Source: Microbacterium sp. MYb54 (lineage in GTDB: Bacteria > Actinomycetota > Actinomycetes > Actinomycetales > Microbacteriaceae). Taken from it: a stretch of DNA of 64,000 nt. Location: NCBI RefSeq assembly GCF_002979515.1, contig NZ_PCPA01000003.1, positions 186,001 through 250,000 of the forward strand, read 5' to 3'. Both the position numbers and the translations under genes were made by a program. Below the pieces are notes generated by a model that was not told where the DNA came from, made no database searches, and saw nothing but the letters and a program-made list of their open reading frames with translations. This document shows positions 5,308 through 49,079 of this stretch, in pieces; the stretch's first letter is position 1; each line of letters begins with the position of its first letter.

Positions 5308-5372
5308 CCGTCGTCCTCCTCTGAGGCTCCAGGGGCGAGAGGGGGTGGCGGAACGGACGCACGTATGCGCCT

Positions 5373-5513
5373 CGTGCTGCCTCCCTTCCGGACTAGCGAG
5401 GTCTCCCTCACATCACCGTCGGTCCCGGAATTCCACCGGATCGGCATCCCGATCTCTCGAGACGCTCGCGGACTGTCACCGCCGGTTCGGATTCTCACCG
5501 ACCCCGGAGCACG
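5373..5513 (-). promoter_or_regulatory. FMN riboswitch (RFN element) of the rib operon
   Basis: On the minus strand the leader contains the conserved RFN segments in order: the closing-stem half CGTGCT (5513-5508), GGGGTCGGTGAGAATCCGAA, CCGGCGGTGACAGTCCGCGA, then GGTGGAATTCCGGGACCGACGGT, then AGTCCGGAAGGGAGGCAGCACG, whose AGCACG (5378-5373) closes stem P1. FMN binding is known to shut off rib operons through such elements. The 65 bases before the ribD start hold its Shine-Dalgarno site and no obvious U-tract terminator, so control may be at translation initiation. Confidence 0.95.
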
Positions 5514-5524
5514 TTGTTGCTCTG

Positions 5525-47287: not shown

Positions 47288-47293
47288 TAGCCT
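47288..47293 (+). promoter_or_regulatory. Probable -10 box of the Mn-riboswitch transcript
   Basis: TAGCCT would place the transcription start near 47300, directly before the first paired base of the aptamer at 47302. Confidence 0.45.
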
Positions 47294-47301
47294 CGTCGGA
47301 G

Positions 47302-47393
47302 CAAGGGGAGTACTCCCGTCTGCAGCGAAGTCGTCACTACGAGCACGAGATCGTGCTCCGGCCCGCTGGCCCGCGAGGGTGGAGGAGACCTTG
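47302..47393 (+). promoter_or_regulatory. yybP-ykoY (Mn2+) riboswitch
   Basis: CAAGG (47302-47306) and CCTTG (47389-47393) close the first stem. The two Mn2+-site loops are recognisable: GGGGAGTA directly after the stem and GGTGGAGGAGACC before its other half. Between them lie CGTCACTACG, a GAGCACGA/TCGTGCTC hairpin and CCGGCCCGCTGGCC, in the order of the family. Known members switch on Mn exporters (MntP, TerC/Alx, P-type ATPases). CCCGC ATC GCGGG (47397-47409) just downstream may be part of the switching hairpin. Confidence 0.85.
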
Positions 47394-47480
47394 GCACCCG
47401 CATCGCGGGCTGCCGAGAGAACCCTGCCGTCGTTCCGACGTCGTGGATCGCGGTGGTCCGCACCACGAAGGGACGCACTC

Positions 47481-48407
47481 ATGGGAAAGCTCTCCCGCCT
47501 GATCGGAATGGCATCCGACGCGCTCGAGAAGAACGCCGGCTCCGGGCGCAACGATCATTCGACTGACGGATCCCGTGCGCAGGACGGATCCCGCTCGACC
47601 GACTGGGGAGGCATGCTCCGTGGCGCCGTCGACGCCGTTCGTGGGCAGGGTGACCCAGGGCAGCCGTCGAGCCAGGGCCGCTCCGCGCCGGCAGATCCGT
47701 ATGCGCCGCCCGCCTCGCCCGGTGAGCGCGCGCGTTCGACGAGCGCGGCACCAGCATCTCCGAATCCGTACGCGCCGCCTGCTCCGGGAGCTCCGCGCGC
47801 TTCGCAGACGGCAACCGATGCCGATCGCGCGGCCATCGCCCGCTATGACTACCTGCTGCAGACGGCAGATCCGCAGCGGGTCGAACAGATCCACCGCGAA
47901 GCCTTCGCCCGACTGACTCCCGAGCAGCGGACGCTCGTCGAAGCGCGCATGCGAGAGGAGCTCGCACCTACCGAGCGCCCGAGGTCGTCATCGCCCGACG
48001 ACCTCGCGCGTGCTGCCGGACGTGCGGAAGCCATGAAGCCGGGGCGGATGCGCGGTCTGCTGTCGCGGGTGCGCGGTGCGGGTGCCGGCGGTGCGGCGGT
48101 CGCCGCAGGTGGCGCGGCGGTCGGTCTGCTCGGCGTGGTCGCCGGTGGCGCCGTGCTCAGCACGGTGGCCGGACCGCTGCTCGAGCAGGCGGCGAACATC
48201 GGCGTCGACTTCGGTGCGTTGGCTGAGGGTATCGATGTCGAGTCCCTTGCATCCGGTCTGGATGTCGAGGGGCTTGCCGGAGGTGCAGGCGACCTGATGG
48301 GCTCCGCAGGGGATGCGGTGTCCGGGATCGGTGATGCGGCGAGTGGGTGGGGCGAGCAGCTCGGCAACCTCGGCATCCCCGGCATCGGCGACCTCTTCGG
48401 ACGCTGA
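47481..48407 (+). CDS. Hypothetical protein behind the Mn2+ riboswitch
   Basis: A 308-residue protein that I do not recognise. The N-terminus is MGKLSRLIGMASDALEKNAG, followed by a disordered Pro/Ala/Ser region with two NPYAPP/DPYAPP repeats. A helical segment follows (AAIARYDYLLQTADPQRVEQIHREAFARLTPEQRTLVEARMREE), then a Gly/Ala-rich hydrophobic helix (about residues 205-235) and a Gly-rich C-terminus (DLMGSAGDAVSGIGDAASGWG). It may be a membrane-anchored accessory protein. ATG 47481 has GAAGGGA upstream; a longer in-frame start would overlap the riboswitch. It is 6 bases ahead of a DedA gene. Confidence 0.75.
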   Translation: MGKLSRLIGMASDALEKNAGSGRNDHSTDGSRAQDGSRSTDWGGMLRGAVDAVRGQGDPGQPSSQGRSAPADPYAPPASPGERARSTSAAPASPNPYAPPAPGAPRASQTATDADRAAIARYDYLLQTADPQRVEQIHREAFARLTPEQRTLVEARMREELAPTERPRSSSPDDLARAAGRAEAMKPGRMRGLLSRVRGAGAGGAAVAAGGAAVGLLGVVAGGAVLSTVAGPLLEQAANIGVDFGALAEGIDVESLASGLDVEGLAGGAGDLMGSAGDAVSGIGDAASGWGEQLGNLGIPGIGDLFGR

Positions 48408-48413
48408 GCGCGG

Positions 48414-49079
48414 ATGGTTCTCCTCACTGCGACCGAGCACGGCTTCACCGGGCTCACCGGGTTCGCCGCCGATGTCCTGACGGCGCTCGGCGACATCGGC
48501 GTGGGCGTGCTGGTCTTCCTCGAAGTGCTGATCCCACCGATCCCGAGCGAGGTGATCCTGCCGTTCGCGGGGTACCTCAGCCAGAGCGGACCCCTGAACC
48601 TGGGCTGGCTGATCTTCTGGAGCACCCTCGCGTCGTGGCTGGGTGCCCTGTTGCTCTACTGGCTCGGTGCGGCGATCGGTATGGACCGGGCCGTACGAAT
48701 GCTCGCGGCGACACGGCTGGTGAGTCGTTCCGACCTGGAACGAGGATCGGACTGGTTCGTGCGCAGCGGCGCCTGGACTGTCTTGGTCGGACGGATGGTG
48801 CCGGGTGTGCGCAGCCTGATCTCGATTCCCGCAGGCGCTTCCCGCATGAACCTCGTGACGTTCAGCGTCTACACGGTCATCGGCAGCGGGCTCTGGAATG
48901 CGCTTCTCCTCGGAGTGGGCGCGGCCCTCGGCACGCAGCACGAACAGCTGGAGGAGTACCTCGGCTACCTCGACTACGCCGTGTACACGGCGATAGCAGT
49001 GGCCTTCGTGGTCCTGGTCTTGCGGAGAATCCGGGAGGCCGCGGGGGAGCGGAAGGCAGTCGCCGAGGTCGAGGACTGA
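48414..49079 (+). CDS. DedA family membrane protein
   Basis: A 221-residue protein with about five membrane helices. Family hallmarks are FLEVLIPPIPSEVILPFAGYLSQSG, the conserved arginine motif VGRMVPGVRSLISIPAGASRM, and GSGLWNALLLGVGAALG. DedA proteins are undecaprenyl-phosphate or lipid flippases and affect membrane potential and metal or pH tolerance. It lies 6 bases after the hypothetical gene with no separate promoter, so it is probably transcribed from the Mn2+ riboswitch. Confidence 0.92.
   Translation: MVLLTATEHGFTGLTGFAADVLTALGDIGVGVLVFLEVLIPPIPSEVILPFAGYLSQSGPLNLGWLIFWSTLASWLGALLLYWLGAAIGMDRAVRMLAATRLVSRSDLERGSDWFVRSGAWTVLVGRMVPGVRSLISIPAGASRMNLVTFSVYTVIGSGLWNALLLGVGAALGTQHEQLEEYLGYLDYAVYTAIAVAFVVLVLRRIREAAGERKAVAEVED

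What the first reader, a model, noticed from the sequence alone, without database searches (positions are those of the whole stretch)
47302..49079. Mn2+ (yybP-ykoY) riboswitch in front of an unrecognised protein and a DedA protein, not a known Mn exporter
The aptamer is well formed (closing stem CAAGG/CCTTG, GGGGAGTA and GGAGGAGACC loops), but the first gene is a disordered Gly/Ala/Pro-rich protein with one hydrophobic segment, followed 6 bases later by dedA. No TerC, MntP or P-type ATPase is present. Either these two genes form a new Mn-response or efflux unit, or an exporter has been lost between riboswitch and gene.
Basis: partly seen in the sequence, partly recalled or inferred. Interest (0 to 1): 0.72.

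Follow-up and report, generated by a model that had tools for sequence, protein, structure and literature searches.

The report
Manganese-switch leader controlling an unknown protein
In this relative of Microbacterium an RNA leader of the kind found in front of manganese exporter genes sits instead in front of a conserved protein of unknown function plus a DedA membrane protein, so both are predicted to be switched on by excess manganese and would be new parts of the bacterium's manganese handling.

Summary
A structured leader (47302-47393) precedes a 308-aa protein ("gene1", 47481-48407) and dedA (48414-49079). Rfam RF00080 does not score it, nor any place in this genome, but RF00080 reaches its cut-off in 0 of 148 genomes of the class. 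A model built from relatives shows strong covariation (13 of 21 pairs changed on both sides). It finds two more leaders in this genome, both before TerC genes. In 80 family genomes, 56 of 60 hits lie before TerC. In the class it overlaps sub-threshold RF00080 hits before GDT1 and Na/Ca-exchanger genes. So this is a divergent manganese-type (yybP-ykoY-like) leader. The exporter is not lost: terC2 sits elsewhere with its own copy. Relatives keep leader-terC2-gene1, or terC2 and gene1 back to back, each with a leader. In the genus, 43 of 48 strong gene1 hits have the leader directly upstream, in several neighbourhoods. dedA is a clade-specific addition (13 of 119 genomes, always behind gene1). 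Gene1 has no Pfam family and no convincing fold match. Best guess: a membrane-associated partner of TerC. Manganese binding, induction and gene1's function are untested.

The parts
47288..47293 (+). predicted -10 promoter element (TAGCCT) about 15 bases before the aptamer
   Evidence: TANNNT at offset -14 to -16 in 31 of 31 leaders examined, including both TerC leaders of this genome; 1.6% of random 20-base stretches of the same loci hold one. No consensus sigma-70 promoter was found by the generic scan.
47302..47393 (+). Mn2+-riboswitch-type (divergent yybP-ykoY-like) aptamer
   Evidence: Model R1 112 bits (this row is in the training set); covariation; homologous leaders before TerC, GDT1 and Na_Ca_ex genes.
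47302..47306 (+). 5' strand of closing stem P1 (CAAGG); pairs with 47389-47393
   Evidence: 90.7% of cells paired; the second pair (A-U) is broken in 10 of 28 rows.
47389..47393 (+). 3' strand of P1 (CCTTG), shared with the alternative hairpin
47390..47417 (+). anti-P1 hairpin (predicted Mn-free state of the expression platform)
   Evidence: Present in the unconstrained fold, -87.1 kcal/mol against -77.7 with P1 forced. On 20 distinct rows 90% of cells pair, but only one pair changes on both sides, and two of the outer pairs that overlap P1 are broken in 13 and 6 of 20 rows.
47467..47472 (+). likely ribosome-binding site (GAAGGG) of gene1
   Evidence: Sequence; inference from spacing.
47481..48407 (+). 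gene1: 308-aa protein, NCBI name of many relatives 'cation-transporting ATPase', no Pfam family; helical core residues about 113-202, Gly-rich hydrophobic segment about 207-234
48414..49079 (+). dedA (VTT domain), 6 bases behind gene1
   Evidence: Pfam VTT_dom 6.9e-20; NCBIfam UptA models below their cut-offs.

Best explanation
The leader at 47302-47393 is homologous to the leaders that precede TerC and other manganese-exporter genes in related actinomycetes, and it likely senses Mn2+ and then raises expression of gene1 and dedA. Shown here: homology, covariation, shared promoter-like element, conserved linkage to gene1, and linkage of gene1 to terC2 in relatives. Inferred: at low Mn2+ the 3' strand of stem P1 is held in an alternative hairpin (in a sister clade this hairpin would also cover the ribosome-binding site); Mn2+ bound between the GGGGAGUA and GGAGGAGACC loops would stabilise P1, free the downstream part and allow expression. 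Inferred and weaker: gene1 is a membrane-associated accessory of the TerC2 manganese exporter/metallation factor, working through its conserved helical core; the ancestral operon was leader-terC2-gene1, and in Microbacterium gene1 came to have a leader of its own while terC2 kept one elsewhere. In the window's clade a dedA gene was added behind gene1.
For: Own genome: three hits of R1, the window plus the two TerC genes (C45 72 bits, in training; C1 46 bits, E 1.2e-6, not in training); next best E 0.64. Family: of 60 hits in 80 genomes, 56 lie under 800 bases upstream of a TerC domain on the same strand. Class: R1 overlaps sub-threshold RF00080 hits before Na_Ca_ex genes (L098; L097 weakly) and GDT1 genes (L099, L101, L102, L104, L108). 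Genus: 43 of 48 gene1 hits over 150 bits have the leader 19-220 bases upstream, two more at 1.1 and 2.1 kb with a TerC between; of 25 lower-scoring hits only one does, and that one (G275) is split over two frames. Leader-terC-gene1 in L026, L027, L070, L120; divergent leader/terC2 and leader/gene1 in L122. Leader and -10-like element go together. Own terC2 is 81% identical to the TerC of L026. Literature: terC cg2157 of C. glutamicum has an RF00080 leader observed by RNA-seq (PMC3890552, passage); mneA and terC behind yybP-ykoY are Mn-induced in Vibrio (PMC13274385, passages).
Against: RF00080 gives no hit here. No ligand test. P1 has a broken pair in 10 of 28 rows. Expression-platform hairpins show little covariation, one pair each; in the window's clade two outer pairs of the anti-P1 hairpin are often broken, and there is no terminator-like site. 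Gene1 also exists without the leader: L028 and L029, three of 48 genus hits (G240, G279, G282), and long homologues in other genera (L068, L069, L071-L075). Gene1 is next to TerC in only a few lineages. Of the 23 loci behind the weak RF00080 hits, R1 finds only 7 at E<=0.01. Three of 60 family hits besides the window precede no TerC. The tree's polarity rests on a fork of support 82 from 105 columns, and one TerC-linked row (L121) lies elsewhere in it.
Confidence: 0.72

Rival explanations
1. Relic: terC2 was excised from an old leader-terC2-gene1 operon, and the leader now controls gene1 only by accident of history, without a manganese role for gene1 or dedA.
For: TerC lies between leader and gene1 in L026, L027, L070 and L120, which branch first in the tree, support 82.
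Against: Leader and gene1 stay together across the genus (43 of 48) and in different neighbourhoods (ndh/alr site, L024/L025/L030, L141-L165); in L122 each gene has its own leader. A relic should decay.
Confidence: 0.12
2. The leader senses something other than Mn2+ (another divalent ion, or pH as proposed for some TerC leaders; the pH idea is recalled).
For: It is too divergent for RF00080, and TerC proteins have other reported roles.
Against: The GGGGAGUA loop is invariant and the GAGACC loop nearly so; homologous leaders sit before GDT1 and Na_Ca_ex genes, and a weak one before Mntp.
Confidence: 0.12
3. Gene1 and DedA together are themselves a manganese exporter, replacing TerC in this operon.
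For: Both look like membrane proteins in one Mn-type operon; in the genus sample the window-type dedA was found only behind gene1 (13 of 13).
Against: dedA is missing from 30 of the 43 leader-gene1 loci of the genus; the dedA co-location is one clade, so shared descent explains it; gene1 has a single clear hydrophobic segment; two TerC genes remain in the genome.
Confidence: 0.07
4. Gene1 is a cation-transporting ATPase, as NCBI names it.
For: Name on many relatives.
Against: No Pfam or NCBIfam domain at E<=1, no convincing fold match, 308 residues with one hydrophobic segment.
Confidence: 0.01

Closest known systems
yybP-ykoY / Manganese riboswitch (RF00080), e.g. terC cg2157 leader of Corynebacterium glutamicum
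   Same: Loop motifs, closing stem, position before TerC, GDT1 and Na_Ca_ex genes (and, weakly, Mntp); R1 overlaps sub-threshold RF00080 hits at L097, L098, L099, L101, L102, L104, L108.
   Different: No RF00080 match at E<=10; compact (92 bases); target gene is not an exporter.
TerC family metal exporters/metallation factors (MeeF/MeeY of Bacillus, Alx)
   Same: Carry the same kind of leader in this genome, and are operon partners of gene1 in relatives.
   Different: Gene1 has no TerC domain and a single clear hydrophobic segment.
YqgC (membrane protein of the yqgC-sodA operon supporting Mn efflux in B. subtilis; PMC11332163, abstract)
   Same: Precedent for a membrane protein of unknown function that supports Mn efflux.
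   Different: No sequence comparison was made; other operon and regulation.
DedA / UptA undecaprenyl-phosphate transporters
   Same: VTT domain; best NCBIfam matches are UptA models.
   Different: 128.5 and 103.2 bits against cut-offs of 300 and 250; placed behind a Mn-type leader.

Membership tests
Mn2+ riboswitch yybP-ykoY (RF00080) | Score above Rfam's gathering cut-off | tested here: not met
   The same cut-off is reached in 0 of 148 genomes of the class, so it is called a yybP-ykoY-like variant, not filed as an RF00080 member.
Mn2+ riboswitch yybP-ykoY (RF00080) | Conserved GGGGAGUA loop and GAGACC loop joined by a closing stem | tested here: met
   GGGGAGTA invariant in 29 of 29 rows, GAGACC at 90% or more per column. 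That these are the family's motifs: GGGGAGUAG is in the RF00080 consensus; GAGACC as the second loop is recalled.
Mn2+ riboswitch yybP-ykoY (RF00080) | Conserved secondary structure supported by covariation | tested here: met
   for the structure drawn here; agreement helix by helix with RF00080 was not tested.
Mn2+ riboswitch yybP-ykoY (RF00080) | Homologous leaders precede Mn exporter genes | tested here: met
   TerC 56 of 60; GDT1 and Na_Ca_ex; Mntp only with R1 at E 0.57 (L100).
Mn2+ riboswitch yybP-ykoY (RF00080) | Binds Mn2+ and changes expression | not testable with these tools
   Needs RNA probing or a reporter.
DedA family | VTT domain | tested here: met
   PF09335, 72.2 bits against 33.9.
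UptA undecaprenyl-phosphate transporter | NCBIfam equivalog cut-off | tested here: not met
   128.5 of 300, 103.2 of 250.
P-type cation-transporting ATPase (gene1's NCBI name) | ATPase domains | tested here: not met
   0 Pfam and 0 NCBIfam families at E<=1.
TerC (for gene1) | PF03741 domain | tested here: not met
   the genome's TerC genes are at C1 and C45.

The most novel reading that the evidence does not exclude
Gene1 founds a new family of Mn2+-induced, membrane-anchored partner proteins of TerC exporters/metallation factors, controlled by an actinomycete subtype of the Mn2+ riboswitch that present RNA-family searches do not see; in one clade a DedA lipid transporter has been recruited to the same switch, tying manganese status to envelope lipid traffic.
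Probability: 0.33. Interest if true: 0.72.

Novelty: new variant of a known kind. Interest (0 to 1): 0.55.

Why it matters
The targets of this riboswitch class named in the papers seen here are transporters or membrane proteins of that kind (terC; MneA, TerC, YrbG, and titles naming MntP and a Mn2+/Ca2+ ATPase). Here a conserved non-transporter protein carries the same kind of leader across a genus, so its role in manganese handling can be tested directly. The finding also exposes a blind spot: the current RF00080 model reaches its cut-off in none of 148 genomes of the class, although homologous leaders precede TerC genes in 48 of 80 genomes of the family. What works alongside TerC proteins outside Bacillus is, as far as I know, little studied; gene1 is a concrete candidate.

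Full report
WHAT IS THERE. RF00080 does not match: no hit at the gathering score, at E<=10 in the surrounding 2.5 kb, in the 121 bases alone or at E<=0.001 in the whole genome.

THE LEADER IS A CONSERVED STRUCTURED RNA. Gene1's protein brought in 31 loci from named genomes. 29 of 31 carry the leader: 27 directly before gene1 and 2 before a terC-gene1 pair (L026 Salinibacterium, L027 Marisediminicola); L028 and L029 have none. An alignment of 29 sequences (window, 27 of these 29 loci, and the genome's own terC2 leader) keeps GGGGAGTA in all rows. With the structure I wrote down, 94.0% of cells pair and 13 of 21 pairs change on both sides; slid versions give 29-46% and 0-4 pairs. Stem P1 is among the weaker: one of its pairs is broken in 10 of 28 distinct rows. 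Model R1 was built from this.

IT IS THE MANGANESE-EXPORTER KIND OF LEADER. In this genome R1 finds three places: the window, a TerC gene on contig 45 (terC2; in training) and a TerC gene on contig 1 (46 bits, E 1.2e-6; not in training); the next is E 0.64. In 80 genomes of the family, 49 have hits at E<=0.01; of 60 hits, 56 lie under 800 bases upstream of a TerC domain match on the same strand. The four others are the window, G074, G068 and G013. In 148 genomes of the class RF00080 reaches its cut-off in none, but 19 have a match at E<=1. Of the 23 loci fetched around those matches R1 finds seven at E<=0.01, each overlapping the RF00080 match: L097, L098, L099, L101, L102, L104, L108. The next gene is Na_Ca_ex in L097 and L098 and GDT1 in the other five; L100, where R1 reaches only E 0.57, precedes Mntp. 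The remaining RF00080 matches, mostly short and weak, have no R1 support. C. glutamicum's terC (cg2157) leader is listed with an RF00080 score of 49 and observed by RNA-seq (PMC3890552, passage read), yet that genome is not among the control genomes that ring with today's model (it is in the control set). So the current model under-detects this class, and the window leader belongs to the same stock. That this stock binds Mn2+ is inferred from the known family, not tested.

ONE MODULE, MANY PLACES. A TANNNT element lies 14-16 bases before the aptamer in 31 of 31 leaders examined, TerC and gene1 leaders alike, against 1.6% of random stretches (L019 was dropped by the pattern used). Promoter and aptamer therefore seem to travel together.

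GENE1 BELONGS WITH THE LEADER. In 119 genomes of the genus, 48 gene1 hits score over 150 bits (two are cut by contig ends). 43 have the leader 19-220 bases upstream; G277 has it 1.07 kb upstream with terC2 in between (L120); G300 has it 2.06 kb upstream with another TerC and about 1.1 kb more in between (L121); G240, G279 and G282 have none, confirmed on the fetched stretches. Of 25 lower-scoring hits only one has a leader, and that one (G275) is split over two frames; eight loci of the shorter paralogue (L168-L175) show none. The neighbourhood differs between clades: ndh/tRNA-Leu/alr around the window, other sites in L024, L025, L030 and L141-L165. In L122 terC2 with a CNNM gene behind it and gene1 stand back to back, each with a leader. 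In a tree of the 105-column core, leader-bearing gene1 forms a starred group of 80 rows (five leaderless ones inside); the terC-operon rows L070, L120, L026 and L027 branch at its base and the leader-gene1 rows are nested within, support 82; L121 lies among the latter. I read this as leader-terC2-gene1 first, gene1 with its own leader later. The genome's terC2 is 81% identical to the TerC of L026, terC1 52%.

DEDA IS A LATE ADDITION. dedA follows gene1 in 17 of the 27 leader-gene1 loci among L001-L031. In the genus sample the window-type dedA (82-100% identity) is in 13 of 119 genomes, always 10-107 bases behind the end of the gene1 hit; the other DedA hits at E<=1e-40 are 44% identical or less. 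This is one clade, so descent alone could explain it. Separately, the short gene1 paralogue has a different dedA just upstream in 3 loci (L088, L093, L094) of the 21 (L076-L096) looked at.

GENE1 ITSELF. No Pfam or NCBIfam family at E<=1. AlphaFold2 gives a helical core (residues about 113-202, most confident at 131-190), low-confidence flanks and a Gly-rich hydrophobic segment. Neither the whole model nor the core alone matches a solved fold convincingly. Across 111 core sequences of both subfamilies R121, Y122, Y124, L125, T128, E135, A141, F142, L145, R150, R181, E183, P187 and G188 never vary, and H138 is kept in 110. The NCBI name 'cation-transporting ATPase' has no support.

HOW IT LIKELY WORKS. 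In the window's clade a hairpin (47390-47417) uses the 3' strand of P1; the unconstrained fold contains it (-87.1 kcal/mol) and forcing P1 costs 9.4 (the ligand is not modelled). In a sister clade the P1 3' strand (ACCUU) pairs with the AGAGGU ribosome-binding site: 91.5% of cells paired on 17 rows. Covariation is slight in both (one pair each), and in the window's clade two outer pairs are broken in 13 and 6 of 20 rows. So the switch mechanism is a model: Mn2+ would stabilise P1 and free the message. There is no terminator-like site. Whether the window acts on transcription or translation is open.

ROLE OF GENE1. The shared leader and the operon links point to TerC2. TerC proteins in Bacillus work with the secretion machinery to supply Mn to exported enzymes (PMC10550928, passages), and a membrane protein of unknown function that supports Mn efflux has a precedent in YqgC (PMC11332163, abstract). 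A membrane-anchored partner of TerC2 is therefore my best guess, at about one in three.

VERDICT. The riboswitch kind is known; a conserved non-exporter target and a subtype invisible to RF00080 are the new parts.

Noticed in passing
L033:3-1202 (minus), contig 45 of this genome: terC2 is followed by a CNNM/CBS/CorC gene; a homologue also follows terC2 in L122.
   Followed up: partly
L052:1501-1584 (minus): A 61-bit leader without TerC, on the minus strand between ackA- and serA-like genes (by eye) on the plus strand; no convincing gene seen downstream.
   Followed up: partly
L050:1501-1599 (minus): A 62-bit leader followed by an acetyl-xylan-esterase (AXE1) frame instead of TerC.
   Followed up: partly
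L067:1501-1593: A 37-bit leader-like hit before a TctC (tripartite tricarboxylate receptor) gene; may be a false positive.
   Followed up: partly
L088, L093, L094: A short paralogue of gene1's core lies just behind a different dedA gene, a second gene1-family/DedA neighbourhood.
   Followed up: partly
L098 and L097: Sub-threshold RF00080 hits precede Na_Ca_ex genes; a paper names yrbG under yybP-ykoY in Vibrio vulnificus (PMC13274385, passage); that YrbG is of the Na/Ca-exchanger type is recalled.
   Followed up: partly
window 5371-5515 (minus): FMN riboswitch (79.6 bits) before a ribD-like frame (by eye); ordinary.
   Followed up: partly
The present RF00080 model does not ring in the control genome Corynebacterium glutamicum although an older Rfam listing gives its terC leader 49 bits.
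   Followed up: no
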